In this document: positions 41,850 to 59,857 of the stretch, piece after piece
Layout of the letters: every line of letters begins with the position of its first letter
Position numbering within the stretch: the first letter of the stretch is position 1
Assembly (NCBI RefSeq): GCF_028716865.1
Contig: NZ_JAQUOY010000016.1
Coordinates: forward strand, 1-64,000
Direction of reading: 5' to 3'
DNA length: 64,000 nucleotides
Source of the DNA: Candidatus Methylomirabilis sp.
Lineage (GTDB): Bacteria; Methylomirabilota; Methylomirabilia; Methylomirabilales; Methylomirabilaceae
Program-made: the position numbers and the translations under genes
Notes under the pieces: model-generated
Told to the model about the DNA's origin: nothing
The model's input: only the letters and a program-made list of their open reading frames with translations
The model's database searches: none

Positions 41850-42256
41850 CTGCCGCGCTCGCCTTGCTGCGCGCGCCCGCTCCAGGGGATTTGTTGACAT
41901 CCGATACCTCGTGCGTGCGGCCGATCATTCCTGTCGTAGTTAATTAGCAGCCGCCTCTTTATCTCTCTGCGTGCCAGACAGTAGCAAATCATTTATTGAC
42001 ACTCCGCATGAGGATTCCAACAGCGCGTCCCGTTTATCAATAAGTTAGCGCATCATGCGGAGCCACGTCAATCGGAAAGATTTACGCCGGTACTGTTGGT
42101 CGCGGAGTGTAGGCACTCGGTATTCGTCCATTCCTCGCGCAGTCCTGATCTATTTATTGTTTGTGGACTCCGGCCGCTACTTGACAGAGCGTACAACGAA
42201 CGGTATTGTTCTCATAGGGTACTCAGACGTCTACTGACCCATGAAGGGTGCTGATC
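41850..42256. other. intergenic region before the first lasso B1 gene
   Basis: About 400 bases separate the BACON gene from B1. I searched both strands for a lasso precursor (YxxPxL leader followed by a Gly-led core) and found none. It contains one good promoter at 42181-42209 and nothing else I can support. Confidence 0.55.
42181..42209 (+). promoter_or_regulatory. strong sigma70-type promoter for the first B1-B2 pair
   Basis: TTGACA (42181-42186) is a perfect -35, followed after 17 bases by TATTGT (42204-42209). Transcription should begin near 42216, about 41 bases before the B1 start at 42257. Confidence 0.6.
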
Positions 42257-42556
42257 ATGAGCCAACGTGTCTCGCTCGCATCGGGCGTGCGAATCTGCCA
42301 GGATGTTCTCTCCCGCGATCTACAGGGCGAGGAAGTCATCCTTGACCTCAATACCGGGGTCTATTTCGGCCTGGACCAGGTAGGGACGCGAATCTGGCAA
42401 TTGATCCGGGAGCATCGATCTCTTCAACAGGCTCTCGATTCTATGCTCCAAGAGTACGAGGTGACGAAAGCGCAATGCACGCACGATCTCCTTTGTTTCG
42501 TCACGCAGATGGCGGACAAAGGGTTGGTTGAGGTGCGTAATGGGGAGGATACATAA
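42257..42556 (+). CDS. lasso-peptide B1 protein, PqqD-like RRE (first copy)
   Basis: The protein has 99 residues from ATG 42257. It is a PqqD-fold RiPP recognition element: GEEVILDLNTGVYFGLDQVGTRIWQLIREHRSLQQALDSMLQEYEV and LLCFVTQMADKGLVEV. B1 proteins bind the leader peptide and present it to the B2 protease. About four residues in five match the second copy at 44736. GTG 42248 is an alternative start. It overlaps B2 by 17 bases. Confidence 0.9.
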   Translation: MSQRVSLASGVRICQDVLSRDLQGEEVILDLNTGVYFGLDQVGTRIWQLIREHRSLQQALDSMLQEYEVTKAQCTHDLLCFVTQMADKGLVEVRNGEDT

Positions 42557-42986
42557 ATTTTTCCGACTCCCGCCTGCTGAGCGCCGCATTCTCGCTCAAG
42601 CCTGGGGGTTTTTCCTTCTGGTTGATCTCGCCCTGCGAATCCTGCCGTTCACGCGGCTCCTCACCCTCTCTGAAAAAGTGTTCCTGAAGCGAAAAGAGGA
42701 ACCTGCCGTGGTATTGGTCCCCTCTGCCGCACGTCTGGCCTGGTTGGTGGAGGTCGCTGAGCGATACGCCCCCGTCACAGCAACCTGCCTCAAAAAAGTC
42801 CTGGTCCTTTTCTGGCTTCTTGGGAGGCGAGGAATCCCAGCGGAGCTTCAAATCGGCGTCTCGCGTGACGAAGGAAGGCTCAAGGCCCACGCCTGGCTCG
42901 ATCACGATGGACAGATCATTCTCGGCCGTCACGAAGGCGAACGCTACGAGCCCCTCCTCCCGACAGGTCGAACAGACATAGGGTAG
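42540..42986 (+). CDS. lasso-peptide B2 leader protease, transglutaminase-like (first copy)
   Basis: The protein has 148 residues from ATG 42540, which has GAGGTG five bases upstream. It is a Transglut_core3 protein: Cys83 in TATCLKKVLVLFWLLGRRGIPAEL and His117 in KAHAWLDHDG fit the catalytic Cys and His, with Asp121 or Asp123 near. It would cut the leader from a lasso precursor. No cyclase or precursor follows it here, so it may serve the second cluster or be idle. Confidence 0.9.
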   Translation: MGRIHKFFRLPPAERRILAQAWGFFLLVDLALRILPFTRLLTLSEKVFLKRKEEPAVVLVPSAARLAWLVEVAERYAPVTATCLKKVLVLFWLLGRRGIPAELQIGVSRDEGRLKAHAWLDHDGQIILGRHEGERYEPLLPTGRTDIG

Positions 42987-43025
42987 AATGGCAAAAGGCC
43001 TAAACGCCGAGCGGATGAGGAAGCC

Positions 43026-43247
43026 ATGATGGGCAGCGAGAACGACAGGTGCCCCCCGTGTAGCGGAACCAAGAGGCCCGGGAACACGACCTTTACAGTA
43101 GGCTTAGGCTTTGGGGTAGTCGTCGTGAGAAACGTCCCGGCGACGGTCTGCTCCCAGTGTGGGGCAGACTGGATTGTGGATGATGTGGCCGCACGAATTG
43201 AGGAGCTTGTAGACGACGCTAAAAAAAGCGCCTCCAGGTCGAAGTGA
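43026..43247 (+). CDS. YgiT-type zinc-finger protein (orphan antitoxin-like)
   Basis: The protein has 73 residues. Two CxxC pairs (RCPPCSG and TVCSQCGADWIVDD) flank a beta-rich stretch, GNTTFTVGLGFGVVVVRNVPA. This is the MqsA/YgiT zinc-finger type found as an antitoxin half. GAGGAAGCC precedes the tandem ATGs at 43026 and 43029. No toxin gene is next to it, so it may be a stranded antitoxin or a regulator. Confidence 0.78.
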   Translation: MMGSENDRCPPCSGTKRPGNTTFTVGLGFGVVVVRNVPATVCSQCGADWIVDDVAARIEELVDDAKKSASRSK

Positions 43248-43329
43248 TGTCCCTCGCGTAAGCGAACAGTGCTATGCAAAACTGTTTTCAAGAGATCTGC
43301 TTCGCAAAAGAAACTTGGCCCTTCCGGGT

Positions 43330-43494
43330 TTAGTGTGGGTAAAGATCCAGCCCTCTGCAGTGAAAGTAGATCGCTGTCTTAAAGTGTTCGACGTTACGGA
43401 ACCCTCGCGCGGTCTTCTTGACCCACTGGATGGTGGTGTTCACGGCCTCCAGGCCGACGTTGGTGAGCCGGCGCTGGAGGTAGGTCAGGTCAAC
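43330..43494 (-). pseudogene. C-terminal transposase fragment (probably ISL3-like)
   Basis: The minus strand encodes LTYLQRRLTNVGLEAVNTTI, then QWVKKTARGFRNVEHFKTAI and YFHCRGLDLYPH. This is the usual C-terminal end of a DDE transposase in the ISL3-like group. The rest of the gene is missing. GGCCCTTCCGGGTTTAGTGTGGGT at 43318-43341 may be the element's terminal repeat. Confidence 0.68.
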
Positions 43495-43615
43495 ACTGCC
43501 TGCCAGAGGCAACCGAGTGAGTGAGGCGGCGTACTGGCGAGCCAGGTATTCAGACGCCGAACCTACAAATAAACCGCTATGGACTGCGGCTGAGTTCGAA
43601 CAAAGGCGTACCAAG

Positions 43616-44428
43616 ATGTATAACGGGAGTGCCAGCACTAAAGTGCCGCAGTTGGTTCGGCTTTACAGAAACGCGGACCGAGCGGTTGACCGGGCGCTTG
43701 GGCTGGCTCGAGTGATACACGAGGGAGTATGGCTAGGCTTGCTCAACCCAGCCGAGAGGGTGGCGGTGACCTTAACCTACTTCTCCCAATCAGAAATGTA
43801 CCGGAGCCGAGAACACAACACGACTGTTGTTTATGAGTGGGAGCGGCGAGTGTTTGAAAGGTACTTCCGACCGGGCTGTAGCGTTCTGGTGGCGGCGGCG
43901 GGCGCGGGGCGGGAGATGCTGGCGCTGAGGCGTATGGGCTGCCAGGTGCACGGATTTGACTGCTGCGCGGAACTCGTTGAAGCCAGCCGAGGTCTGCTCA
44001 GTGAGGAGGGCATGGACTCGCAGGTGACGCTGTCGGCTCCGAACGAAGTTCCAACGAATCTGGCCCACTGCGAGGCGATCATTATCGGCTGGTGCGGGTA
44101 TCATCATATCCCCGGCCGCGCGCGCAGGATCGGGTTTCTGAAACAATTGCGGAGATTGGTGGACGGCGGTGCGCCGATGCTTTTATCTTTCTTCACTCGG
44201 AGCGACTCAGGACGTTACGAAAAACTGGTGTGGCGGGTCGCACGTGCGACCCGGTTCTTGGGCGGATTCCGCGCGGAGCCGGTGGAGCTAGGTGACCGTC
44301 TCATGGTCTCTACCTCCGCGCACTGCTTCGAGAAGGAGGAGGTCGAATTAGAGTTAGCGGCCGGGGGATTCAGGTTAGCCTATTACTCGGATAAGGAGTA
44401 TGGGCACGCGGTCGGAATTGCCGTGTGA
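43616..44428 (+). CDS. class I SAM-dependent methyltransferase in the decayed lasso locus
   Basis: The protein has 270 residues from ATG 43616. The frame is open upstream to 43517, but that part runs antisense toward the transposase scrap; the true N-terminus is uncertain. Motif I is SVLVAAAGAGREMLALRRMGCQVHGFDC; EAIIIGWCGYHHIPG and MLLSFFTRSDSGRYEKLVWRVA follow. It is not PRMT-like. It overlaps a nucleotidyltransferase stub at its end. The substrate is unknown. Confidence 0.78.
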   Translation: MYNGSASTKVPQLVRLYRNADRAVDRALGLARVIHEGVWLGLLNPAERVAVTLTYFSQSEMYRSREHNTTVVYEWERRVFERYFRPGCSVLVAAAGAGREMLALRRMGCQVHGFDCCAELVEASRGLLSEEGMDSQVTLSAPNEVPTNLAHCEAIIIGWCGYHHIPGRARRIGFLKQLRRLVDGGAPMLLSFFTRSDSGRYEKLVWRVARATRFLGGFRAEPVELGDRLMVSTSAHCFEKEEVELELAAGGFRLAYYSDKEYGHAVGIAV

Positions 44429-44735: not shown

Positions 44736-45035
44736 ATGAGCCAACAGGTTTCCCTCACATCGAGCGTGCGAATTCGCGACGACGTTCTCTCTCGCGACCT
44801 GCAAAGTGAGCAGGTGATCCTTGACCTCAATACGGGGATCTATTTCGGCCTGGATCCTGTGGGGACACGGATCTGGCAATTGATTCAGGAACATCAATCG
44901 CTTCAGAAGGTTCTCGATTCTATGCTCGAAGAGTACGAGGTGGCGGAAGCGGAATGTACGCACGATCTCCTTCATTTCGTCACGCAGATGGCGGACAGAG
45001 GGTTGGTTGAGGTGTACAATGACGGAAGTTCATAA
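44736..45035 (+). CDS. lasso-peptide B1 protein, PqqD-like RRE (second copy)
   Basis: The protein has 99 residues. SEQVILDLNTGIYFGLDPVGTRIWQLIQEHQSLQKVLDSMLEEYEV and LLHFVTQMADRGLVEV show the PqqD-like winged-helix RRE. It would bind the YxxPxL leader of the precursor at 49142. It overlaps B2 by 17 bases, exactly as the first copy does, so the pair was duplicated as a unit. It is the first gene of the complete cluster. Confidence 0.92.
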   Translation: MSQQVSLTSSVRIRDDVLSRDLQSEQVILDLNTGIYFGLDPVGTRIWQLIQEHQSLQKVLDSMLEEYEVAEAECTHDLLHFVTQMADRGLVEVYNDGSS

Positions 45036-45450
45036 GTTTTTTCAACTTCCGCCCAACGAGCGTCTTATCCTCGCCCAGGCTTGGGGGTTGTTCCTACTTA
45101 CTGAACTCGCCCTGCGAGTGCTTCCGTTTACCCATCTTCTAAGCCTCTCGAGGAAGAAAAGTGTCCTGAAGCGAATGGGCAACCCTTCGCTCCCCCCCTT
45201 CGTATCTGTCCTTCGCTTGTCGCGGCTGGTGGAAGTCGCCGGCCGATACACCCACGCGAAAGTCATGTGCCTGAAAACAGCCCTTATCCTGTCTTGGCTC
45301 CTTGGCAGGAGAGGAATCTCGACGGAGCTTCGAATCGGCGTTACGCGTGAGAGTGGAAGCTTCAAGGCTCATGCCTGGCTCGATCACGATGGACACGTTA
45401 TCCCCGGCCATCAGGAGGGCGAGCGTTATGAACTCCTTCTCGGCGCGTGA
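45019..45450 (+). CDS. lasso-peptide B2 leader protease (second copy)
   Basis: The protein has 143 residues from ATG 45019, again with GAGGTG upstream. KVMCLKTALILSWLLGRRGISTELRIGV supplies the catalytic Cys and FKAHAWLDHDG the His. B2 cleaves the leader so that the freed core amine can be cyclised. Both B2 copies keep the catalytic residues. Confidence 0.92.
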   Translation: MTEVHKFFQLPPNERLILAQAWGLFLLTELALRVLPFTHLLSLSRKKSVLKRMGNPSLPPFVSVLRLSRLVEVAGRYTHAKVMCLKTALILSWLLGRRGISTELRIGVTRESGSFKAHAWLDHDGHVIPGHQEGERYELLLGA

Positions 45451-45471
45451 CGGAAGCAGTTTGGCGGCGAG

Positions 45472-45552
45472 ATGAGTGGCATTGCAGGAATGTATAATTT
45501 GGATGGCCACCCGGTTGACTCTGCACTTCCTGGGCGCATGATTCATGTATAG
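45472..45552 (+). pseudogene. lasso cyclase 5' stub (26 codons)
   Basis: Twenty-two bases after B2 a frame reads MSGIAGMYNLDGHPVDSALP and six more residues, then TAG. The intact cyclase at 47147 starts MSGIVGIWNLDGHPVN, so this is the start of a second, diverged cyclase. Everything after it is missing, and another gene occupies the place. Confidence 0.72.
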
Positions 45553-45595
45553 CTTATCGTGGCCTGGATATGATGAAAGGGCGAGAATTCCAAAT

Positions 45596-47137
45596 ATGGA
45601 TGAGCGACATTCGCGAACAGGTCTCGACCCCATTGGTCGCGTCTTCACAATGGAGAACCACGACGACGCCTATCACATCTGGCGCGATGCAGGTGTGAAG
45701 CAGAGGGTGCTAATCCATATCGACGCCCATCACGACATGTGGTGGATTGCGGATGCCAACTCAATTACTATTGCAAATTTTGTATGCCAAGCCTTAAAGG
45801 ACGACATCGCAAGAGAAATCTTTTGGGTTGTCCCAGATCCGACGTGGGAAACACCTCGAAGCCGCAGACCAATCCTTCGGCATGTAAGGAAAATCGTGGA
45901 GAGCTATCCAGGGGTTCGTCACGACTTGCAGGTGAAAACGAACCAGATTTCCACAGTCGTGCTCGGGAAACCGCTGACGATATGCCCCCTCTCTTCTCTG
46001 CCACGGATCGATGAAGGTGTTCTTCTTGACATCGATAGCGATTTTTTAATGATCCCCCGTGTTTCCTATCAAGAAAGCGATGAACACGGAGCGCTTCCGT
46101 GGTGCTGGCCCGAGGACCTGCTGGCTCGACTGCACGCATGCCACATTCGCGCAGACCTCGCGACGATCGCCTATTCTGTCGAGGGCGGCTACACTCCGTT
46201 GAAATGGAAGTATCTCGGGGATGAATTGGCGTTTCGCCTGAGGCGACCCGACCATTGCGGGGACGCCATCCGGGGAATGAGGCTGATTCGTGAAGCGGTC
46301 CTTGCAGCTCATCACGGCGACCTCGTTACTGCTGAAGCAAAGTATCACGAGGCCGGTCAACTTCTTCCCGACCTTCCCGCCCTCCACTATCATCTAGCCC
46401 ATCTGTACGTTGAGATGGGCCGGATCGACGATGGGCAAAAGTCGTACCGACGGGCGCTAGCCCTAGACGTCTCCTACCGAACGGCCTATAATAGCGCCGG
46501 GCTCCATTACCACTTGGACGGATGTGCCCGGGCCGTCGAGCGAGAATATCGGCGGGCCCTGGCGCTTGATCCGGAGGATGCCTACGCTCATTGCGGCCTG
46601 GGGCGACTTGCCGCCCAGAGGAGACACTGGAACGAGGCTGAAGCGTTGCTCAGAAAGTCCCTGGCACTCGACGAGCACCTTATCAACGCCTATCGGACGC
46701 TAGGGGATGTCCTGGTCAAGCAAGGTCGTTGCGAGGAGGCGATCAGGGCCTACGAACAGTCTCTCAAATTGGCCTTAGCCGGCTACAAGCCCCTGAAGGG
46801 ATCGATCGCGACTTATGCTAATAGCGATCACCGGGTGATTGACCAGGACCACGGCCGGATCCATGCCCGTCTAGCCCGTCTGTACGAGTTGAAAGGGTCT
46901 ACCACCGAGGCGATCAACGGGTATCGAATCGGTATTGCAGGCGGGTACGACGGAGTTCTCCTCCGAAGCCGCCTTGCCCATCTCTTTCTGAAACAGGGCC
47001 ACTGGCTCAGTGCTGTTGAAGAAACCTGGCAAGTGCTGAAGGTGCTTCCCGTTGACCTGAGGAAAGCTGGTCGCCGGTTTCTCCGTCACCTGCGACTGAT
47101 CATCGAGGATGGACATCAAGCTCTACCTACTCACTGA
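45596..47137 (+). CDS. UPF0489 domain protein with C-terminal TPR repeats
   Basis: The protein has 513 residues from ATG 45596; ATG 45545 in the same frame is an alternative. The N-terminal 200 residues match UPF0489: FTMENHDDAYHIWRDAG, VLIHIDAHHDMWWIADANSI, LLDIDSDFLMIPRVSY and DLATIAYSVEGGYTPLKWKYLGDELA. HxDxHHD recalls the metal site of arginase and deacetylase folds. From about residue 225 on there are TPRs (LHYHLAHLYVEMGRIDDGQKSYRRAL; AYAHCGLGRLAAQRRHWNEAEALLRKSLAL). It lies between a cyclase stub and the intact cyclase. A hydrolase that edits the peptide is conceivable; there is no direct evidence. Confidence 0.75.
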   Translation: MDERHSRTGLDPIGRVFTMENHDDAYHIWRDAGVKQRVLIHIDAHHDMWWIADANSITIANFVCQALKDDIAREIFWVVPDPTWETPRSRRPILRHVRKIVESYPGVRHDLQVKTNQISTVVLGKPLTICPLSSLPRIDEGVLLDIDSDFLMIPRVSYQESDEHGALPWCWPEDLLARLHACHIRADLATIAYSVEGGYTPLKWKYLGDELAFRLRRPDHCGDAIRGMRLIREAVLAAHHGDLVTAEAKYHEAGQLLPDLPALHYHLAHLYVEMGRIDDGQKSYRRALALDVSYRTAYNSAGLHYHLDGCARAVEREYRRALALDPEDAYAHCGLGRLAAQRRHWNEAEALLRKSLALDEHLINAYRTLGDVLVKQGRCEEAIRAYEQSLKLALAGYKPLKGSIATYANSDHRVIDQDHGRIHARLARLYELKGSTTEAINGYRIGIAGGYDGVLLRSRLAHLFLKQGHWLSAVEETWQVLKVLPVDLRKAGRRFLRHLRLIIEDGHQALPTH

Positions 47138-47146
47138 GAAACAGAA

Positions 47147-49117
47147 ATGAGCGGCATCGTCGGCATCTGGAATCTCGATGGGCACCCAGTCAACAAGACC
47201 GTGCTCATGGGGATGAGCGCCACGCTGGCTCACCGCGGGCCAGACGGGGAAGACTTGTGGGTCCAGGGGTCAGTGGGACTGGGCCACCGGATGCTCCATA
47301 CCACGCCGGAATCGCTGTTGGAGAAGCAACCCTTAGTCGATGAGACGGGCAAGCTCTGCCTGACGCTGGACGGTCGAGTGGATAATCGGGAGGAACTGAG
47401 AGCGGCACTGGAGGCCAAGGGCGCAACACTTCGAACCGATACCGACGCCGAGCTGGTGCTGCGGGCGTACGAGGTGTGGGGCGAAGACTGCCCGCAACGC
47501 ATCCTTGGAGACTTTGCCTTTGCAATCTGGGACGGGAGGAGTCGGCAGCTCTTCTGTGCCCGGGACATCCTGGGCATCAAGCCGTTTTACTACTACGCCG
47601 ACGGCTGCAGGTTCCTTTTCGCTTCAGCGCTCCGGCCGCTCTTTGAAAATCCGGCTGTCCCGCGTGAACCGAACGAAGGGATGGTGGGAGAATATCTGGC
47701 TACTAACTTCACCAGCCAGCAGGAAACGTTGTATCGGGGCATCCTTCGGCTGCCGCCGGCGCAGTTCCTAATCGTCCAGCCCGATAAGATCCGGATGGCG
47801 CGGTACTGGGATGTTGATCCGGACAAAGCGATCCGGCATGGGAGCGATGACGCGTATGCCGAGGAGTTCCTGGAGATCTTCAAGCGAGCCGTTCGGTGCC
47901 GGCTGCGCAGCCACAGGCTGGTCGGGGCAGATTTAAGCGGAGGACTGGACTCCTCGTCCGTCGTCTGCGTGGCCCACTCGCTCTATCGCGAGGGCGTGGT
48001 GGCCAACCCCGGCTTGGAGACTTTTTCATTGCTCTTTCCGGGGCTGCCCTGCGACGAAAGCGCGTATATCCGGGACGTGACGCGGATGTGGGAGGTCAAG
48101 TCCAATGCGGTGGCGGCGGAAGAAACGGCCGCGTCGCGCTACGCGGAAGAAGTTACTCGCTACCATGATTGCTCAATCGCTCCCAATACCGTGATGCATG
48201 ATCCTGCCATGATCCTGGCACAGGAAATGGGCGTCCGGGTCCTCCTCACGGGTCAGGGAAGTGATGAATGGTTAACGGGTGACTTTCTTCACCATGCTGA
48301 TTTTTTGCGGAGGTGTAGGATTGCAGATCTGGTCCGCCAGGCTCGATTTGACTCGCAGGTCCTTTCCAATCTTGATCAGTCCGTGTCGCCGCTGTTCATG
48401 ATTACCAGGTATGGCCTTTGGCCCTTTCTCCCGCGACCTGTACAGCGGGCGGTCAAGTGGGCTTTGCGCAGAGAGCCCAATGATGTCCCTCCCTGGATTG
48501 ATCCCACGTTTGCGCGCCGGATCCAGTTAGCCGAGCGGTTCCGGAAAAAGGACTCGGCGGGGCGACAATTCCCCACCTTTGTTCAGGCGGAACTCAGTTC
48601 CGCCCTCACCTCCGGCGACTGGTGCTTCTCATACGAGTTCATTGAACGATACGGATCCTCGTTCGGTCTCGAGTATCGCCATCCTTTTCTCGATCGAAGG
48701 ATGATCGAGTATGCTCTGGCCCTTCCCGAGGAACAGCGCTGGCGGCGAGATCACACGAAATTTGTCCTCCGTCAGGCGATGCAGGGTCTGTTGCCGGAGA
48801 CGGTCCGACAGCGACGTACCAAAGGTAACTTCGCCTGGGTCTTCCTGCCGGCCCTGGCCGCCCAAGCGGATGAACGCTTCTTTGACTCCCTGAGCATTGC
48901 CGCGCAGGGCTGGGTGAACACGGATCCGCTCCGACCGATGTATCGACACATGGTGACGCGCTACGCCAGTGGCGCTGCAGACTGCTCTAAGTACATGTGG
49001 TCGCTGTGGATGATCTTTAACATCGAACTCTGGTTCAAGACGATCTTTCTGGGAGGTGTACTCGTTTCACCGCGCGTCGGTCGAGGGCAGGAGGCCGCCA
49101 TCCAACCACCCATTTAA
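47147..49117 (+). CDS. lasso-peptide cyclase (asparagine synthase-like C protein)
   Basis: The protein has 656 residues. It starts MSGIVGIWNLDGHPVN: the amidotransferase nucleophile Cys2 is Ser, as expected for a lasso cyclase that does not use glutamine. The ATP PP-loop is VGADLSGGLDSSSVVCVA. GQGSDEWLTGDF and SFGLEYRHPFLDRRMIEYAL complete the synthetase part. It would adenylate the core Asp side chain and form the isopeptide bond to the N-terminal amine. The precursor gene lies 24 bp downstream. Confidence 0.93.
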   Translation: MSGIVGIWNLDGHPVNKTVLMGMSATLAHRGPDGEDLWVQGSVGLGHRMLHTTPESLLEKQPLVDETGKLCLTLDGRVDNREELRAALEAKGATLRTDTDAELVLRAYEVWGEDCPQRILGDFAFAIWDGRSRQLFCARDILGIKPFYYYADGCRFLFASALRPLFENPAVPREPNEGMVGEYLATNFTSQQETLYRGILRLPPAQFLIVQPDKIRMARYWDVDPDKAIRHGSDDAYAEEFLEIFKRAVRCRLRSHRLVGADLSGGLDSSSVVCVAHSLYREGVVANPGLETFSLLFPGLPCDESAYIRDVTRMWEVKSNAVAAEETAASRYAEEVTRYHDCSIAPNTVMHDPAMILAQEMGVRVLLTGQGSDEWLTGDFLHHADFLRRCRIADLVRQARFDSQVLSNLDQSVSPLFMITRYGLWPFLPRPVQRAVKWALRREPNDVPPWIDPTFARRIQLAERFRKKDSAGRQFPTFVQAELSSALTSGDWCFSYEFIERYGSSFGLEYRHPFLDRRMIEYALALPEEQRWRRDHTKFVLRQAMQGLLPETVRQRRTKGNFAWVFLPALAAQADERFFDSLSIAAQGWVNTDPLRPMYRHMVTRYASGAADCSKYMWSLWMIFNIELWFKTIFLGGVLVSPRVGRGQEAAIQPPI

Positions 49118-49141
49118 TCCATCAAGCAAGGAGAAGACGTG

Positions 49142-49321
49142 ATGAAACAGCGACAGGAGCGCGCAGCGTCCAAGCAACCAGAAGCAGGTCGGCAAGCGGC
49201 TGGGAAGAAGCGGTATGCCTCCCCTCGCCTCGTGGCATACGGCAGCCTGACAAAACTAACACAAACTTCTGGTAGAAGCGGTGGGGGCACTGACTCAAGC
49301 ATGACCATGGTATGTATATAG
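49142..49321 (+). CDS. lasso-peptide precursor (A), predicted core GRSGGGTDSSMTMVCI
   Basis: The peptide has 59 residues from ATG 49142, with AAGGAG eight bases upstream; GTG 49139 would add one residue. The leader holds Y25-A-S-P28-R-L30-V-A-Y-G34, the YxxPxLxxxG motif bound by B1 proteins. Thr42 is at position -2 from the predicted cut. The core begins at Gly44 and runs to Ile59. Asp51 is core position 8, giving an eight-residue ring Gly1-Asp8 and an eight-residue tail SSMTMVCI. The core has one Cys (15) and one Arg (2). All parts of the lasso pattern are met; the mature product is a prediction. Confidence 0.9.
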   Translation: MKQRQERAASKQPEAGRQAAGKKRYASPRLVAYGSLTKLTQTSGRSGGGTDSSMTMVCI

Positions 49322-49446
49322 CCACCAAGTGTTCTCGATCCCACTGCGGACGCGCTAGAGCATGTTAAGCATGTTAAAAAAGATAGGCGTTTGTCACCTG
49401 TTACCACAGTGGGGTAAGGAGGCTCGTACCGGCGGAGGAGATCTCT

Positions 49447-50586
49447 GTGTCGCTCGTAGTGGATGAGCATCGCGCATATCTCGCCGATCAAGCGCGAATG
49501 TCTGCCTTTTGCAAGGCGATCGGCGAAACCGTAAAGCCTGGCGATGTGGTCCTGGACCTGGGCTCGGGAACGGGAATCCTGGGGCTGTTTGCGTGCCGGG
49601 CCGGCGCTACACGGGTCTATTCGATCGAGGAAGGCGGAATGGTCGAGTTGGCCAGGGCAATCTGTCGGGCTAACGGTTTTCACGACCGGGTGACGTTCAT
49701 CAAGGGCCTCTCGACGCGAGTAGAGCTCCCAGAACGGGTCGATGTGGTCGTGGCGGATCAAATCGGGCGGTTCGGCTTTGAGGCTGGTTTACCGGAATAT
49801 TTTGATGATGCGCGGCGCCGCTTCCTGAAACCCGATGGGCGGCTGCTCCCCTCTTGTGTGGAGATGTGGGTCGCGCCGGTCGAGTGCCCGGAGATGTTTG
49901 CCCAGGTGGAGTTCTGGAATGACTCCCCCGCCGGGTTTGATTTTCGGCCGGCCCGGTCGTGGGCCGCAAACACAGGCTATCCGGTGAAGTTGCGTGCGGA
50001 CCATCTCTTGAGCGATCCGGTTTCAGCCGCCTTGCTGGACCTCTCGATCACCATCCCGACACCATTGACTCTGGAAGCCTCCGTCCTGGCGACAAGAGCT
50101 GGTAATCTGCACGGGATCGGGGGGTGGTTTTCGGCACGGCTGTCGAACAGTGTCACCATGTCCAATTCTCCGCTGGCAACGCATTCCATTAATAGGAGGA
50201 ATGTCTTCTTTCCGGTTGACCGGCCGGTGGGCCTGGAGAAGGGCGACCGTGTTCGGATCAAGATGCAGATTCTGCCGTCCGAACTGGTGATCACATGGGA
50301 GGTAGAGGTGTGGGGAATGGCTGACGCCAGGAAGGCCCGGTTCACGCATTCTACGTTCCACGGTATGCTCATTTGCAAGGAGGATCTCGAACGGACTCAG
50401 CCTCACTTTATCCCGAAGCTCTCGCCGTGGGGAGACGCTCGTCGTTCTATCTTGAATCTGTGCGATAGTCAGCGAACCCTTGCGGAGATCGAGCAGGAGA
50501 TCTACAGTCATTATCCCGAACTCTTTCGCTCACTGGGCGAGGCTGCGGCCTTTGTGGCCGAAGTCATCACGAGGTATTCGCTCTGA
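49447..50586 (+). CDS. PRMT-like methyltransferase with a PqqD-like C-terminus
   Basis: The protein has 379 residues from GTG 49447, preceded by GGAGGAG. SAM motif I is VVLDLGSGTGILGLFACRAGATRVYSIEEG, near residues 34-63. DVVVADQIGRFGFEAGLPEYFDDARRRFLKPDGRLLP sits where PRMTs have the double-E loop; the first Glu is Asp here. The middle is a PRMT-like beta barrel. The last 55 residues (SILNLCDSQRTLAEIEQEIY and following) resemble PqqD. This could be a built-in leader-binding element. Arg2 of the core is one possible target; a carboxylate is another. Confidence 0.8.
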   Translation: MSLVVDEHRAYLADQARMSAFCKAIGETVKPGDVVLDLGSGTGILGLFACRAGATRVYSIEEGGMVELARAICRANGFHDRVTFIKGLSTRVELPERVDVVVADQIGRFGFEAGLPEYFDDARRRFLKPDGRLLPSCVEMWVAPVECPEMFAQVEFWNDSPAGFDFRPARSWAANTGYPVKLRADHLLSDPVSAALLDLSITIPTPLTLEASVLATRAGNLHGIGGWFSARLSNSVTMSNSPLATHSINRRNVFFPVDRPVGLEKGDRVRIKMQILPSELVITWEVEVWGMADARKARFTHSTFHGMLICKEDLERTQPHFIPKLSPWGDARRSILNLCDSQRTLAEIEQEIYSHYPELFRSLGEAAAFVAEVITRYSL

Positions 50587-50588
50587 CC

Positions 50589-51563
50589 ATGCGGGGTAAT
50601 CGAAACGGAGATGAGCGGCGATCGCTCCACGCCTATCGGCTATATGGTGTCTGCGTCAGAAGCCAATGGCGGCTTCCGTATCCTGACTGCACAGAAACCA
50701 ATCATTCAGCCATTGAACTCGTCGAGGAGCCACCTACGTTCTTTGAGGGAGCGGCGCAGGAAGCCGCCGGCCAGCCAAACGCCGCAGAGTGGGCCCAGTA
50801 CGTACACCTCCGCGATGACGCTTACTATCTGAGATGGTCCGAACTCTTTGAGTTTCTGGTTTCTGCCGATGGTTGCCGAATCGCAGGACGCCCGCTCACC
50901 CATGTCGCCTTCGAAGCATTTCATACCTACCTTCTGGGGGCGGTGCTCTCCTTTTCCTTGATCAAACGAGGACTGGACCCGCTGCATGCGACCACCGTTG
51001 TTATCGATGGAGGAGCGGTAGGCTTTCTTGGCGATACCGGTTATGGAAAATCGAGCCTTGGCGGGGCCTTCATCCAGGCAGGGTATCCCGTGCTGACCGA
51101 TGACCTGCTCCTGCTGAGGGAAGGGAAGCATGGGTTTTCTGCTTCCCCTGGCCCGCCTCGGATCAAGCTCTATCCCAGGATTGCCAGGAAGCTGCTCGGC
51201 GAGTACGCCACGGGGGTCCCGATGAATCCTTTGACGCGCAAGCTCATCATTCCTTTGGGCCGCGATCAGGTACACCAGGCGCCTGTCGCCTTGAAGGCAC
51301 TCTATCTGCTCCCGCGGCCGTCGGCGCCCGCACGACGCAAGCGAGTCACCGTCCGGCGCGTGTCCCAGCATAGCGCCTTCCTGGCCTTGCTCAAAAGCGC
51401 CTTCAACACGGAGATCATCGACTCGGAACGGCTCAGGCGTCAGTTTCTCTTATGCACTCGGATTGCGTCCACAGTTCCAGTGAAGTTGCTCTCATACCCC
51501 AGAAGCCTCGCGTCGCTCCCCTCAGTTCGTGAGGCGATCCTCGCAGACCTCAATAAAGCATGA
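50589..51563 (+). CDS. HprK-like kinase of lasso clusters
   Basis: The protein has 324 residues. LDPLHATTVVIDGGAVGFLGDTGYGKSSLGGAFIQAG holds a Walker A at about 148-156 and the conserved HATTV. PVLTDDLLLL matches the HprK catalytic Asp region. Homologues in paeninodin-type lasso clusters phosphorylate the C-terminal Ser of the precursor. Here the precursor ends in Cys-Ile, so the target would have to be an inner Ser or Thr or something else. It starts 2 bp after the methyltransferase stop and overlaps the ATPase gene by 4 bases. Confidence 0.87.
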   Translation: MRGNRNGDERRSLHAYRLYGVCVRSQWRLPYPDCTETNHSAIELVEEPPTFFEGAAQEAAGQPNAAEWAQYVHLRDDAYYLRWSELFEFLVSADGCRIAGRPLTHVAFEAFHTYLLGAVLSFSLIKRGLDPLHATTVVIDGGAVGFLGDTGYGKSSLGGAFIQAGYPVLTDDLLLLREGKHGFSASPGPPRIKLYPRIARKLLGEYATGVPMNPLTRKLIIPLGRDQVHQAPVALKALYLLPRPSAPARRKRVTVRRVSQHSAFLALLKSAFNTEIIDSERLRRQFLLCTRIASTVPVKLLSYPRSLASLPSVREAILADLNKA

Positions 51564-52342
51564 GTGAAGCAGCAATTGTCGTTCATCACCTCACAAAGCG
51601 GTTCCCCGTGAGGAGGCGGTTAGGGGAGATGGTCCGCCGACCCTTTCGCTGCCGCTGGGCGACAGCGGTCGATGACCTGAACCTTGAAGTCAGGCGGGGT
51701 GAGGTTTTCGGACTGCTCGGGCCGAACGGGGCCGGTAAAACGACCCTCCTGAAAATCCTCTGCACCTTGCTCCTCCCAACCGAGGGGAGGGCTGCCGTGA
51801 ACGGGCACGACGTGGTCGAGGCGCCTCAAAGAGTCCGGCAGGCTGTGGGCTATTGCCTGGAGACGGACCGGAGCTTTTACTACCGCCTCACCGGTTTTCA
51901 GAATCTTAAGTTTTTTGCGACCCTCAACAATATTGGCTTGCGGGAGGCGACCACCCGGATCGCGGAGGTCCTGGAGATGGTGGAACTGGATGGGGCGGCT
52001 ACTACCCCGTTTATGACCTACTCGAAGGGGATGCAGCAGAAGCTTGGCCTGGCTCGTGCCCTCCTGACCGATCCCCCAGTCCTCCTTCTGGACGAACCCA
52101 CCAAGAGCCTGGACCCTGGCGCTGCGGCAGAGTTCCGGCGCTTCCTCAGGGGTACACTGGCGGAGGGGCTCGGGAAGACGGCCCTTTTGGTGACTCACAG
52201 CCTCGAAGAAGCCCGCGAATGCTGCGACCGAGTGGCCATCGTGGATCAGGGAAAGATTGGCTTTCAGGGTCCCTGGTTCGAGGTCCATAGGTTCATCCAG
52301 GCTCACGGGTTTCCCGGCCACTCTCTGCTTGGTGTCGGGTGA
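51560..52342 (+). CDS. ABC-2 type transporter ATP-binding protein (lasso export)
   Basis: The protein has 260 residues. Walker A GLLGPNGAGKTTLLKIL, a CcmA/drug-exporter-like signature YSKGMQQKLGLARALL, Walker B PVLLLDEPTKSLDPGA and the H-loop LVTHSLEEA are all intact. It pairs with the permease directly downstream (GTGA overlap). The likely role is export of, and immunity to, the lasso peptide, usually done by a D protein. It is coupled to the kinase gene by an ATGA overlap. Confidence 0.9.
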   Translation: MSEAAIVVHHLTKRFPVRRRLGEMVRRPFRCRWATAVDDLNLEVRRGEVFGLLGPNGAGKTTLLKILCTLLLPTEGRAAVNGHDVVEAPQRVRQAVGYCLETDRSFYYRLTGFQNLKFFATLNNIGLREATTRIAEVLEMVELDGAATTPFMTYSKGMQQKLGLARALLTDPPVLLLDEPTKSLDPGAAAEFRRFLRGTLAEGLGKTALLVTHSLEEARECCDRVAIVDQGKIGFQGPWFEVHRFIQAHGFPGHSLLGVG

Positions 52343-53142
52343 ATAAGCCCCTCGCGTTCCTAAAGCGGGATCTCCTCATCGAGGCGAGCTATCGGTTTTC
52401 TTTTCTCATTCAGATAGTCTCGGTTCTCTTCTCTATCGCTTCGTACTATTTTCTCGCCCGCTTCATTGGAGGTTGGGCCGTCCCTGGGCTGGACGTCTAT
52501 GGGGGGGACTACTTCACCTTCGTCCTGGTTGGCGTGGCCTTGCATGACTACCTTGCGACCTCGCTGGACGCGTTTTCCCGCAGCATCCGCGAGTCCCAGT
52601 TGGCCGGGACCCTGGAGGCCCTCATGTCGACTCAGACCTCCGTCCCCACAATCATTCTGTTATCCGCCGCCTATCCGTTCCTCTGGACATCCCTAACCGT
52701 GGTCCTCTACCTTGCGCTCGGAGTTGGGCTTTTTGGCGTACGTCTGAGCTCGGGGAACTGGGCAGCGGCCGCATTGATCCTGATGCTGGGAGTCGTAGTG
52801 TTCAGCGCTCTGGGTATCCTCTCGGCCAGCTTCATCATGGTCTTCAAACGCGGGAGCCCTATCGCCTGGCTTCTTGGAGGGCTCTCCTGGCTGCTTGGCG
52901 GAGTCCTCTACCCGGTCACGATCCTCCCGGATTGGCTTCGGCGGATTTCCGCGCTGATGCCGATCACCTATGCTATCGAGGGGATGCGGGCGGCTCTGCT
53001 GCGGGCCGCTCCCTGGTCTGAGGTCTGGCCCAGTGTCATTCCACTGCTCCTGTTTGCGTTTGCCCTCCTCCCTTTGAGCCTCCTGAGCTTTCAGTATGCG
53101 ACTAGATATAGCCGGATTGCGGGAACCCTCCATCAGTATTGA
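52339..53142 (+). CDS. ABC-2 type transporter permease (lasso export)
   Basis: The protein has 267 residues with six predicted helices: SFLIQIVSVLFSIASYYFLARFIGG, DYFTFVLVGVALHDYLATSL, VPTIILLSAAYPFLWTSLTVVLYLALGVGLFG and others. FKRGSPIAWLLGGLSWLLGGVLYPVTILPDWLRRISALMPITYAIEGMRAALL is the ABC2 signature region. The start is GTG 52339. It would move the mature peptide across the inner membrane. Confidence 0.89.
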   Translation: MNKPLAFLKRDLLIEASYRFSFLIQIVSVLFSIASYYFLARFIGGWAVPGLDVYGGDYFTFVLVGVALHDYLATSLDAFSRSIRESQLAGTLEALMSTQTSVPTIILLSAAYPFLWTSLTVVLYLALGVGLFGVRLSSGNWAAAALILMLGVVVFSALGILSASFIMVFKRGSPIAWLLGGLSWLLGGVLYPVTILPDWLRRISALMPITYAIEGMRAALLRAAPWSEVWPSVIPLLLFAFALLPLSLLSFQYATRYSRIAGTLHQY

Positions 53143-53150
53143 GGGCTGAC

Positions 53151-54332
53151 GTGGTTCACCCCTTCCTCATGGGCCTCCTTCGAGGCACACAATTGGAAGC
53201 CCTCGCGCCGCCATCGCCCGAGGACCAGGCGTGGGAGGAGATTATCAGGGATGCCACCCAACAGGGACTGCTGCCCATCCTTTACCGATGGCTCAAGACA
53301 TCTGACTCCCGCTACCTGCCGTCTGCTCTGAGGCTGGACCAGATCAAAGAAGGCGTCGTAGGTGTGGCTGCGCGGAACGTGGTGCTGGCGCAAGAACTGG
53401 TCTCCATCCTTCAGGCGTTCCAGGTCAGACAGGTGGCCTGCGTGCCTGTGCGTGGTCTGGCCTTGGCGGAACTGCTCTACGGGGACATCACAGCCCGTCC
53501 AATGGGGGACATTGATCTTCTTGTACGCAAGGAGGATCTGTCTAAGGTTGCTGAGGTCCTGAAGGGTTTGGAGTTCCAGGAAATGGACCGACGACCCGGG
53601 TTCGCCTCAGCTTTCTCTTACACACTTGAGTTCTTTAAAGACCGACACGGCGGGGTCATTGTGGAGCCTCACTGGTCGATCGCTTACCCCCCGTTTGCTG
53701 ATAGGGTGGATATGGAAGCAGTATGGGAGCGGTGTGTGCGGGGGCGGGTGGTTGACGTGGATACATGGCTTCTGAGTCGTGAGGACCTGCTCGTGCACCT
53801 CTGCTGCCATCTGATCCATCGCGGTGAGAGTGCGTCGCTGCTCTGGCTCTATGAAATTGATCGCCTTCTCCGACAAGAGAAGGCCACACGTGATTGGCCG
53901 CAGGTAATATCGCTCGCTCAAGAGACGGGCTTGGCACTGTTTGTTGTGGAGGTCTTGGGAAAGGTCAAGGGGCTCTTTGATTCCCCGATTCCCGATGACG
54001 TGTTATCACAACTCAGAGCCCAGCGCAGGCCTCAACCCGCACGAGCAGTCGAAAGTCAATTGGCGCGCCTGCTGATGGGGGAATCGCGCTTAGATGGCGG
54101 GGAGAGCTTTGCCATGCTCTTCACAATCAAGGGGATGCGAGCCAAGTTGCGCTATGCTGTTGCTATCCTGTTTCCCTCCCCAGAATTCATGCGCCTTCAA
54201 TATGGACTGTCCACTCGATGGCAGCTTCCCCTCGCCTATCTTACCCGATTCTTTCACCTGTCCTGGGAAGGGTTGAAGGGGGTCGTCGGCCTGTTCCTCT
54301 CACGCAGGACGCCTCGGCAGCGGCTGTTCTGA
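53151..54332 (+). CDS. nucleotidyltransferase-family protein of lasso clusters
   Basis: The protein has 393 residues from GTG 53151, with GAGGG five bases upstream; TTG 53139 is an alternative. VPVRGLALAELLYGDITARPMGDIDLLVRKEDLSKVAEVL holds the G-D-I-D metal site of the polymerase-beta-like fold. HWSIAYPPFADRVDMEAVWERC and LLVHLCCHLIHRGES follow, as in the PF14907-like family. Such genes accompany HprK-like kinases in lasso clusters; their reaction is not known to me. A stub of a relative lies at 44400. Confidence 0.82.
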   Translation: MVHPFLMGLLRGTQLEALAPPSPEDQAWEEIIRDATQQGLLPILYRWLKTSDSRYLPSALRLDQIKEGVVGVAARNVVLAQELVSILQAFQVRQVACVPVRGLALAELLYGDITARPMGDIDLLVRKEDLSKVAEVLKGLEFQEMDRRPGFASAFSYTLEFFKDRHGGVIVEPHWSIAYPPFADRVDMEAVWERCVRGRVVDVDTWLLSREDLLVHLCCHLIHRGESASLLWLYEIDRLLRQEKATRDWPQVISLAQETGLALFVVEVLGKVKGLFDSPIPDDVLSQLRAQRRPQPARAVESQLARLLMGESRLDGGESFAMLFTIKGMRAKLRYAVAILFPSPEFMRLQYGLSTRWQLPLAYLTRFFHLSWEGLKGVVGLFLSRRTPRQRLF

Positions 54333-57980: not shown

Positions 57981-58415
57981 TTGCAAGCACTCGGGAAACA
58001 CCTGTTGGTGGAACTACACGGCTGTAACCCGGAGCTGCTGAAAAAAGCTGAAGTGGTCAAGGAGATCCTGGTTTGCGCGGCGAATGCCTGCAAGGCCACC
58101 ATCGTAGATACCTCCTTCCACGAGTTCAATCCTTTCGGTGTGAGCGGCGTGGTGGTGATCGCCGAATCCCATATCTCAATTCACACCTGGCCCGAATATC
58201 GATATGCGGCGGTTGACATTTTTACCTGTGGAGATGTCATCAAGCCTGATGTGGCGGTGGAATATATCGCCACCCGGTTTCAGTGCAAAAAACCGTCGGT
58301 CGTCGAGATGCGGCGGGGCATCATTCCTGGTCATCACGGGAAGCTTACCCACAAATTGAGTTCGTCTATGGAGAAGGCTGCCGATGCCGATCAAGAACTT
58401 TCGCTGGTTCATTGA
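57981..58415 (+). CDS. speH: S-adenosylmethionine decarboxylase proenzyme
   Basis: The protein has 144 residues from TTG 57981, preceded by AGGGGGG seven bases upstream. FNPFGVSGVVVIAESHISIHTWPEYRYAAVDIFTCG is the SpeH core. The chain should self-cleave between Glu62 and Ser63 to create the pyruvoyl group; His68 and the Cys in FTCG are the other catalytic residues. It supplies decarboxylated SAM for spermidine synthase downstream. A stub of speE begins inside its end. Confidence 0.95.
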   Translation: MQALGKHLLVELHGCNPELLKKAEVVKEILVCAANACKATIVDTSFHEFNPFGVSGVVVIAESHISIHTWPEYRYAAVDIFTCGDVIKPDVAVEYIATRFQCKKPSVVEMRRGIIPGHHGKLTHKLSSSMEKAADADQELSLVH

Positions 58416-58554
58416 CGCTCTGAGCCCGGAGGAGGGGCACCTGCACGGAATTCGACGAGTGTTGTTCTCCACTCAGACCCTCTTTCAGCCTTTCGACATC
58501 ATAGAACTCGGCAGCTACGGGAAGGCCCTCATTCGTGGCAGATGTCAGCTATGA
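58384..58554 (+). pseudogene. speE 5' stub (56 codons)
   Basis: From ATG 58384 the frame reads MPIKNFRWFIDALSPEEGHL, later FDIIELGSYGKALI, then TGA at 58552. The intact SpeE starts MPIQDHQLLIEAFSPHEGHV and has VELGSYGKALILDG at the same place. It is thus the N-terminus of a second spermidine synthase, cut at about residue 50. It overlaps speH by 32 bases. Confidence 0.78.
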
Positions 58555-58581
58555 CGGACAGAGTTTTTCCTTGTCCGTCAT
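58551..58581. repeat. hairpin ATGACGGACA ... TGTCCGTCAT
   Basis: Ten-base perfect arms (58551-58560 and 58572-58581) enclose an 11-base loop with a T-run in the loop. It starts at the stop codon of the speE stub. It may end or process the speH transcript, or mark the point of truncation. Confidence 0.45.
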
Positions 58582-58929
58582 TGGTCACTAGGACACCCCC
58601 GCACGCTTCGAATTCGCCTCTTAACGTATTTCGTTTTTGCCCTCCGGCATATTGCCCCCACGTGGCACTTCCGGGTTCGTCTGTCTTCTTCCTTCCAGAC
58701 CAGGGCGACAAGGATGACCTTCGCGTCATATAGCGACATTTGGCGGAACCTCCAGTCCGGTCGCTTTGACGTCGCCGCTCAGGTCGCATAAGCCTTGTTG
58801 ACTTTCAGGAGAGTATCACCGCTGCGATTGCCAGCGATACAAGCTGACGCATGATCTAAACGGTCATTATTTTTGTTCTCGTGGTTGGAATAATCATGTC
58901 TGCTGTGTTGAAACGCCGGAGGGAATGGC
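58582..58929. other. intergenic region before speE
   Basis: About 350 bases without a recognised gene. A minus-strand frame across 58529-58789 is open but resembles no family I know. The right end has GGAGGG at 58917-58922, the ribosome site of speE. Confidence 0.4.
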
Positions 58930-59847
58930 ATGCCGATTCAAGATCACCAGTTACTGATTGAGGCGTTTAGCCCACACGAGGGCCATGTGCATGGCGTGAC
59001 CGGCGTGATCGCTACGAGCCGGTCCCCATACCAGACTATCGAGTTCGTCGAGCTTGGGAGCTATGGGAAGGCGCTTATCCTGGATGGGAAGGTGCAGTCA
59101 ACGATGTTAGATGAGTTCATCTATCACGAGAGCATCGTCCATCCGGCCATGCTCTGTCACCCAGCGCCGCGACGGGTCTTCGTCGTAGGAGGAGGGGAAG
59201 GCGCTCCTCTTCGAGAGATTCTCAAGCATCGAAGCGTGGAAAGCGTGCTCTTGGTAGATATCGATAGTGAGGTCGTGGAACTGTGCCGGCGCCACCTTCC
59301 AGAGATGAGCGCTGGAGCATTTGAGGATGAACGGGTTCGGGTCGAGTTTAGGGACGCCAGAGCCTTCCTGGAATCTTCGGACCAGACATTCGATGTGATG
59401 ATCATCGACATCTCGGAACCTGTAGAAGAGGGCCCAGCGTATCTTCTGTTTACTCAAGAGTTCTATAAGATAGTGTTCAATCGACTCACCGAGCAGGGCG
59501 CGCTCGCCGTCCAGGCGGGAACGATCAGCCTCTCCGGTTTGGAATGTTTTGCCGCCGTACATGCTACGCTCCAGAGCGTTTTTCCCGTCGTCGCGCCCTA
59601 CTTCGCGGACATCCCGTCCTTCGGCAGGCCATGGGGGTTCATCTTGGCCGGCAAAGGAACGCATCCTGCTCAGTTCAGCCGGGACGACATTGACCGTGCC
59701 ATTCGGTCCAAGATGCACGGTACATTACGGTACTATGATGGTGAAACGCACACCATGAGCTTCTCACTTCCGAAACATGTAAGAGAGCGCTTGGCCATGG
59801 AAAAGCAGATTATCGAGGACAACCATCCTCTGTTCACATTCCGATAG
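58930..59847 (+). CDS. speE: spermidine synthase (polyamine aminopropyltransferase)
   Basis: The protein has 305 residues. YQTIEFVELGSYGKALILDGKVQSTMLDEFIYHESIVHPAM is the substrate loop. RVFVVGGGEGAPLREILKHRSVESVLLVDIDSEVVELCR is the decarboxylated-SAM site. VMIIDISEPVEEGPAYLLFTQEFYK has the catalytic Asp. It transfers an aminopropyl group to putrescine or a related diamine. It lies 10 bp before the decarboxylase gene. Confidence 0.95.
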   Translation: MPIQDHQLLIEAFSPHEGHVHGVTGVIATSRSPYQTIEFVELGSYGKALILDGKVQSTMLDEFIYHESIVHPAMLCHPAPRRVFVVGGGEGAPLREILKHRSVESVLLVDIDSEVVELCRRHLPEMSAGAFEDERVRVEFRDARAFLESSDQTFDVMIIDISEPVEEGPAYLLFTQEFYKIVFNRLTEQGALAVQAGTISLSGLECFAAVHATLQSVFPVVAPYFADIPSFGRPWGFILAGKGTHPAQFSRDDIDRAIRSKMHGTLRYYDGETHTMSFSLPKHVRERLAMEKQIIEDNHPLFTFR

Positions 59848-59857
59848 GGGCGCAATA

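What the first reader, a model, noticed from the sequence alone, without database searches (positions are those of the whole stretch)
44736..54332. Apparently complete lasso-peptide cluster with an eight-membered-ring core and unusual tailoring set
Seen: B1, B2, an asparagine-synthase-like cyclase whose Cys2 is Ser, and a 59-residue precursor with YxxPxLxxxG, Thr at -2, core Gly1 and Asp8. Known: these are the defining elements of lasso-peptide biosynthesis. Inferred: a 16-residue product GRSGGGTDSSMTMVCI, ring Gly1-Asp8, tail of eight. The set of a PRMT-like enzyme, an HprK-like kinase, a nucleotidyltransferase and a UPF0489-TPR protein around it is a combination I do not know from described clusters.
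Basis: partly seen in the sequence, partly recalled or inferred. Interest (0 to 1): 0.85.

Follow-up and report, generated by a model that had tools for sequence, protein, structure and literature searches.

The report
Lasso-peptide cluster with arginase-like tailoring enzyme
A methane-oxidiser-like bacterium carries a complete gene cluster for a knotted ('lasso') peptide, plus an enzyme of the kind that turns arginine into ornithine inside peptides, a modification not described for lasso peptides in the literature we could search.

Summary
Window 44736-54332 is a one-strand operon encoding a lasso-peptide RRE (B1), leader peptidase (B2), cyclase (C, Ser2) and precursor (A), plus an HprK-like kinase, an ABC-2 exporter and a PF14907 nucleotidyltransferase. 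A kinase with a nucleotidyltransferase is known from the pseudomycoidin cluster. What stands out is the 'UPF0489-TPR' protein: it is related to peptide arginases (Arg to Orn; profile match to OspR, 8BRP, E=1.3e-15), keeps all six Mn ligands, and belongs to a supported clade of six proteins that all lie in lasso clusters (Methylomirabilota-like, Nitrospirota, Acidobacteriota). Within the window's own cyclase clade, this gene goes with a ring Arg2 (GR.G.G.D) and the PRMT-like gene goes with a Met-rich Cys-Leu/Ile tail; the window has both genes and both features. The PRMT-like enzyme has lost the double-Glu pair that PRMTs use to hold arginine, and its closest relatives serve cores without ring arginine, so it probably does not methylate arginine. 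Best reading: a lasso peptide whose Arg2 becomes ornithine, with a methylated tail. Caveats: OspR's Glu11 is Asn in this clade, and no product is known. Verdict: a new variant of a known kind.

The parts
44736..45035 (+). B1: PqqD-type RRE that binds the leader peptide
   Evidence: PF05402 67.7 bits; 70% identical to the B1 of L042 in the same genus
45007..45450 (+). B2: transglutaminase-like lasso leader peptidase
   Evidence: NF033537 77.7 bits against 33; PF13471
45472..45552 (+). 5' stub of a lost first cyclase gene, MSGIAGMYNLDGHPVDSALPGRMIHV*
   Evidence: same start as the window C and L042 cyclases
45545..47137 (+). ARG: peptide-arginase-like domain (about residues 30-240) plus TPR domain; the real start is probably about 45596
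   Evidence: A3 profile to OspR 8BRP E=1.3e-15; NF052474 matches 7 of 7 members; ligands H39, D60, H62, D64, D162, D164 invariant; AF2 pLDDT 83 with residues 1-26 disordered
47147..49117 (+). C: asparagine-synthetase-like lasso cyclase, Ser2, SGGLDSS ATP site
   Evidence: NF033535 568.7 bits against 525; clade with L048 and L038 cyclases, 100/99 support
49142..49321 (+). A: lasso precursor, 59 aa (43-aa leader, 16-aa core)
   Evidence: NF033521 20.0 against 19, NF033528 E=9e-6; homologous precursors in related clusters
49271..49318 (+). predicted core GRSGGGTDSSMTMVCI, ring Gly1-Asp8
   Evidence: sequence; ring plan shared with L048 GRAGSGKD
49447..50586 (+). PRMT-like SAM methyltransferase with degenerate double-Glu and THW loops
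   Evidence: PF22528; Foldseek PRMT6/PRMT1; loop comparison
50589..51563 (+). K: HprK-like peptide kinase
   Evidence: TIGR04352 E=2e-6; homologues in many related lasso clusters
51560..52342 (+). ABC transporter ATPase
   Evidence: PF00005 115.7 bits
52339..53142 (+). ABC-2 membrane protein
   Evidence: PF01061 57.9 bits
53139..54332 (+). NT: PF14907 nucleotidyltransferase
   Evidence: 173 bits against 31.2; 66% identical to L042
42248..42986 (+). second B1-B2 pair upstream, a diverged duplicate (73% DNA identity)

Best explanation
This is a lasso-peptide biosynthetic operon. B1 holds the leader, B2 cuts after Thr(-2)-Ser(-1), and C closes an eight-membered Gly1-Asp8 ring around the tail of a 16-residue core; the ABC-2 pair exports the product. 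The UPF0489-TPR protein is a lasso-dedicated peptide arginase that most likely hydrolyses the single core arginine, Arg2 in the ring, to ornithine plus urea. As with PbsE/BipC, it probably acts on the linear precursor, and its TPR domain probably docks the substrate. The PRMT-like enzyme most likely methylates the Met/Cys-containing C-terminal tail (a side chain or the carboxylate), not arginine. The kinase and nucleotidyltransferase add phosphate, and possibly a further group, to a Ser or Thr of the core. Shown here: gene content, homology, conserved metal ligands, clade structure and the gene-to-core pattern. Inferred: every catalytic step, the order of steps, and the product.
For: Family matches for B1, B2, C and A. 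The arginase-domain profile hits OspR (8BRP) at E=1.3e-15, with no other credible hit. All six OspR Mn ligands (His12, Asp39, His41, Asp43, Asp165, Asp167; PMC10028609) align with residues invariant in seven homologues (H39, D60, H62, D64, D162, D164). The lasso-associated proteins form a supported clade (six rows, 99/95), each beside lasso B1/B2 genes and, where the contig extends far enough, C and A: L048 Nitrospira, L093/L049 Bryobacterales, L092/L050 Terriglobia, L090, L089. The nearest non-lasso member (L091) is fused to a PqqD domain (hhalign E=7e-7) in a radical-SAM cluster. All five readable cores in ARG clusters contain Arg. Within the window's cyclase clade: window (ARG+, PRMT+) has ring Arg2 and the MxM..C[IL] tail; L048 (ARG+, PRMT-) has ring Arg2 without the tail; L038, L040, L073 and L082 (PRMT+, ARG-) have the tail without ring Arg. 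TPR-bearing UPF0489 arginases with proven Arg-to-Orn activity exist in biphenomycin pathways (PbsE, BipC).
Against: OspR Glu11, proposed to steady the guanidinium, aligns with an invariant Asn (ENHD instead of EEHNE) in this clade, so the substrate or rate may differ. The window protein falls below the curated cut-offs of UPF0489 and NF052474. Arg is common in lasso cores without ARG too (about 9 of 19 ARG-negative clusters, counted), so Arg presence alone discriminates weakly; the cleaner co-segregation rests on very few independent changes. The more distant ARG-TPR relatives in Acidobacteriota look like lipoproteins and are not in lasso clusters. No product is known.
Confidence: 0.58

Rival explanations
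1. An ordinary lasso cluster in which the UPF0489-TPR protein is inactive as an arginase (Glu to Asn) and serves as a TPR scaffold or substrate adaptor for the other enzymes.
For: Asn replaces OspR Glu11 in every member of the clade; the TPR domain is long and well folded; TPR proteins are common adaptors (established knowledge).
Against: All six metal ligands are invariant across clades and phyla, which a pure scaffold would not need; Ser211, the counterpart of OspR Ser264, is invariant too.
Confidence: 0.2
2. ARG and the PRMT-like enzyme work on the same Arg2: the guanidinium is methylated, and the arginase acts on, or competes for, (methyl)arginine.
For: Arg2 is the only core Arg and both enzymes come from Arg-directed families; L093 also carries both genes.
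Against: The PRMT first Glu is Asp and the second is Ala/Ser, and the THW loop is lost in the window's PRMT clade; PRMTs with intact loops occur in L127-L129, whose cores are Arg-rich. The closest PRMT relatives serve cores without ring Arg.
Confidence: 0.12
3. A decaying or hybrid locus that makes no product: a duplicated B1-B2 pair, a truncated cyclase stub and a two-residue leader insertion mark remnants of recombination.
For: B1-B2 duplicate; cyclase stub at 45472; leader longer than in L048 and L038.
Against: All operon genes are intact with 4-base overlaps or short gaps, and catalytic motifs are kept.
Confidence: 0.08

Closest known systems
Pseudomycoidin (psm) lasso cluster, with kinase PsmK and nucleotidyltransferase-like PsmN
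   Same: Lasso A/B1/B2/C with an HprK-like kinase and a nucleotidyltransferase
   Different: No UPF0489 arginase or PRMT-like gene is described there; PsmK acts on a C-terminal Ser (PMC9266682), whereas this core ends in Ile, so the kinase target must differ
Peptide arginases OspR (landornamide), FlmR/OhkR, PbsE/BipC (biphenomycins)
   Same: UPF0489 arginase domain with all six Mn ligands; PbsE and BipC also carry TPRs and act on RiPP precursors
   Different: Known members serve other RiPP classes; this clade serves lasso clusters and has ENHD in place of EEH(N/H)E
Citrulassin (peptidylarginine deiminase) lasso peptides
   Same: Post-translational change of a lasso arginine side chain
   Different: A deiminase encoded elsewhere in the genome gives citrulline; here an arginase-like enzyme is encoded inside the operon
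PRMT6/PRMT1 protein arginine methyltransferases
   Same: Fold and SAM-binding motif (Foldseek E about 1e-28)
   Different: Double-Glu and THW loops degenerate; extra C-terminal helices; partner cores mostly lack arginine
Rokubacteria-like and Nitrospira lasso clusters L038/L040/L073/L082 and L048
   Same: Sister cyclases (about 50% identity), related leaders; the first group shares PRMT and tail, the second shares ARG and ring
   Different: Neither group carries both tailoring genes

Membership tests
Lasso-peptide biosynthetic cluster | B1 RRE and B2 transglutaminase-like leader peptidase | tested here: met
   PF05402 and NF033537 above cut-off
Lasso-peptide biosynthetic cluster | Asparagine-synthetase-like macrolactam cyclase | tested here: met
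   NF033535 568.7 against 525
Lasso-peptide biosynthetic cluster | Precursor with YxxPxLxxxG leader, Thr(-2), core position 1, Asp/Glu at 7-9 | tested here: met
   Sequence; NF033521 20.0 against 19; homologous precursors in related clusters
Lasso-peptide biosynthetic cluster | Threaded product of core mass minus water | not testable with these tools
   Predicted [M+2H]2+ 770.8313
Peptide arginase (UPF0489/PF12640, NF052474) | Detectable homology to OspR | tested here: met
   Profile E=1.3e-15 to 8BRP; NF052474 matches 7 of 7
Peptide arginase (UPF0489/PF12640, NF052474) | Score above the curated family cut-off | tested here: not met
   PF12640 16.6 against 27; NF052474 35.4 against 350
Peptide arginase (UPF0489/PF12640, NF052474) | Six Mn ligands (one His; DxHxD; DxD) | tested here: met
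   H39, D60, H62, D64, D162, D164 invariant
Peptide arginase (UPF0489/PF12640, NF052474) | EEH(N/H)EAF motif with Glu11 | tested here: not met
   ENHDDAY: Glu11 to Asn38, first Glu kept
Peptide arginase (UPF0489/PF12640, NF052474) | Arg-to-Orn activity on a precursor | not testable with these tools
   Needs an enzyme assay
Protein arginine methyltransferase | PRMT fold and barrel | tested here: met
   PF22528 36.4 against 27; Foldseek
Protein arginine methyltransferase | Double-Glu loop and THW loop | tested here: not met
   DQIGRFGFEA and THS instead of E-x8-E and THW
PadeK/PsmK-type lasso kinase | His-Lys-Asp-Asp catalytic set | tested here: met
   HATT, GKSS and TDD read in the sequence; motif named in PMC9266682
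PadeK/PsmK-type lasso kinase | C-terminal Ser substrate | tested here: not met
   The core ends in Cys-Ile

The most novel reading that the evidence does not exclude
A lasso-dedicated clade of TPR-peptide arginases, spread over at least three phyla, makes ornithine-containing lasso peptides. In this cluster it is combined with a PRMT-derived methyltransferase that has been turned from arginine to a Met/Cys tail, so that ring and tail are modified by two independently exchanged modules.
Probability: 0.42. Interest if true: 0.68.

Novelty: new variant of a known kind. Interest (0 to 1): 0.52.

Why it matters
Ornithine has not been described in lasso peptides in the papers searched. An arginase acting inside a lasso operon would add a free amine next to the ring closure and a new handle for engineering. 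The clean pairing of tailoring genes with core segments (ARG with ring Arg2, PRMT-like with the Met/Cys tail) makes both enzyme functions directly testable with one precursor and a few mutants. A PRMT fold that has lost its arginine-holding residues inside a RiPP pathway would also show where that family can go.

Tried and rejected
1) Reading the PRMT-like enzyme as an arginine methylase of the core: disfavoured by the degenerate loops and by Arg-poor partner cores. 2) A PqqD/RRE domain fused to the C-terminus of the PRMT-like enzyme, suggested by a weak NCBIfam hit (E=0.031): profile comparison with B1 proteins gave 2.6% probability, so it was dropped. 3) Arg enrichment in cores of ARG clusters as proof: 5 of 5 against about 9 of 19, too weak alone. 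4) Foldseek of the full ARG model: the top hits shown are TPR superhelices and no arginase is among them; the domain-only profile search was decisive instead. 5) Plasmid search for ARG relatives: none. 6) Rfam scan of the window: no match. 7) A second copy of the precursor in the genome: none.
Full report
Setting. The window is contig C16 of a 2.54 Mb, nearly complete genome. The genome encodes a PF02461 (pmoA/amoA-type) protein at E=1.5e-92, absent from 14 control genomes. With a one-contig 2.8 Mb genome in the same genus and larger same-class genomes of 4-6 Mb, this fits a Methylomirabilis-like methane oxidiser.

What is in the sequence. From 44736 to 54332 all genes lie on the + strand with small gaps or 4-base overlaps: B1, B2, ARG (UPF0489-TPR), C, A, PRMT-like, K, ABC ATPase, ABC-2 permease, nucleotidyltransferase. 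B1, B2, C and A each pass a curated Pfam or NCBIfam cut-off. The precursor reads MKQRQERAASKQPEAGRQAAGKKRYASPRLVAYGSLTKLTQTS|GRSGGGTDSSMTMVCI. It is the only copy in the genome, and relatives sit just downstream of the cyclase in related clusters.

Core boundaries. With Thr at -2 the core is Gly1...Asp8 plus an eight-residue tail. The Nitrospira relative (L048) has TQ|GRAGSGKDSHRRKR, the same ring plan G-R-x-G-x-G-x-D. The window has two extra residues (Thr-Ser) before Gly1, so a Ser1-Asp9 ring cannot be excluded; I put Gly1-Asp8 at about 70%.

The UPF0489-TPR protein. The window protein alone is below the UPF0489 and NF052474 cut-offs, but a profile of seven homologues matches the solved peptide arginase OspR (8BRP) with E=1.3e-15 and nothing else credible. 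OspR binds its two manganese ions with His12, Asp39, His41, Asp43, Asp165 and Asp167 (PMC10028609); the aligned residues H39, D60, H62, D64, D162 and D164 are invariant. One difference is real: OspR Glu11, proposed to steady the guanidinium, is Asn38 here and in nearly all close and distant relatives examined. Peptide arginases with TPR domains are known and active: PbsE and BipC of the biphenomycin pathways (PMC12257519, PMC12707348). The two dedicated peptide-arginase papers searched for the word do not mention lasso peptides (PMC12703449, PMC10028609), and no paper in the library joined lasso peptides with UPF0489.

Where its relatives live. A genome-contig scan found three full-length relatives, in a Nitrospira, a Bryobacterales and a Terriglobia MAG. 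All three are in lasso clusters with their own precursors. Further searches added G245 (L090, lasso, core TA|GGGGTRHDTAANTRA), G170 (L089, beside B1, B2, K and ABC genes, contig too short to show C and A) and G213 (L091, fused to a C-terminal PqqD domain in a radical-SAM cluster). No other genome of the window's phylum has it (1 of 95). In a maximum-likelihood tree the six lasso-associated proteins form one clade (99/95), with L091 next (97/96); nine more distant lipoprotein-like or other relatives fall outside and are not in lasso clusters.

Gene-to-core pattern. The cyclase tree groups the window with L048 and L038 (100/99). In this clade three states occur. L048 has ARG but no PRMT: ring Arg2, no Met/Cys tail. 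L038, L040, L073 and L082 have PRMT but no ARG: cores such as SGTQSLGDAGPMMMPGCL and TGTATLGDAGPMMMPCL, no ring Arg, tail rich in Met and ending Cys-Leu. The window has both genes, ring Arg2 and the tail MTMVCI. L074, with a more distant cyclase, has PRMT, no ring Arg and the tail MMNMQCL; L039 has PRMT and the Met run but stops before the Cys. So each tailoring gene travels with one segment of the core. The number of independent changes is small, so this is suggestive, not proof. (The tree itself holds only window, L048 and L038 of these; L040, L073 and L082 are assigned to the L038 group by their cyclase and precursor similarity.)

The PRMT-like enzyme. Sequence and fold are PRMT. In the window's subclade the first Glu of the double-Glu loop is Asp, the second is Ala or Ser, and the THW loop is gone, while the SAM motif is intact. 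Relatives with intact loops beside lasso genes (L127-L129) have Arg-rich cores. The likeliest target in the window is therefore the tail: Met, Cys or the C-terminal carboxylate. This is an inference.

Kinase and nucleotidyltransferase. Such a pair is known from pseudomycoidin, where PsmK phosphorylates a C-terminal Ser and PsmN is needed for hexosylation (PMC9266682). The window core ends in Cys-Ile, so the target must be internal (Ser3, Thr7, Ser9, Ser10 or Thr12) if the kinase acts on the core.

How the operon arose. B1, B2, K and NT are most like the lasso cluster of a same-genus genome (L042: 70, 64, 56 and 66% identity), while C, A and PRMT are most like Rokubacteria-like clusters and ARG is most like Nitrospira. 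Between B2 and ARG lies a 26-codon stub of a cyclase gene (45472-45552). The simplest reading is that an ARG-C-A-PRMT cassette replaced the resident cyclase-precursor part of an L042-like cluster. This is inferred from similarities, not shown.

Verdict. The probability that Arg2 becomes ornithine is a little above one half because of the Glu11-to-Asn change; one co-expression experiment would decide it.

Noticed in passing
window 42248-44428: A second B1-B2 pair (73% DNA identity to the downstream pair) followed by a possible zinc-ribbon protein and a class I SAM methyltransferase; homologues of that methyltransferase lie near lasso clusters in L039, L043, L044 and L093.
   Followed up: partly
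L041, L042, L043, L047, L130: Lasso clusters with two cyclase genes and, as far as seen, one precursor. In four of them C1 and C2 form two separate 100%-supported clades, and C1 lacks the KGD-type motif of C2: possibly a two-subunit cyclase.
   Followed up: partly
L127, L128, L129: Lasso clusters with a divergent PRMT whose double-Glu loop is intact, and cores with repeated Arg near the ring-closing Asp; candidates for lasso arginine methylation.
   Followed up: partly
L091:8378-10057: UPF0489-TPR protein fused to a PqqD domain in a radical-SAM RiPP-like cluster with an HprK-like kinase and a nucleotidyltransferase.
   Followed up: partly
L112 and L113: Lipoprotein-like UPF0489-TPR proteins next to PF02636 (NDUFAF7-type) methyltransferases; the pairing is unexplained.
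   Followed up: no
window 57981-61327: Polyamine genes: AdoMet decarboxylase, spermidine synthase and an Orn/Lys/Arg decarboxylase, 3.6 kb downstream of the lasso operon.
   Followed up: no
window 49271-49318 and cores in L038, L040, L073, L074, L082: The shared MxM/MM..C-[LI] tail resembles soft-metal (copper) binding motifs; the genome has a pmoA-type gene. Speculative.
   Followed up: no
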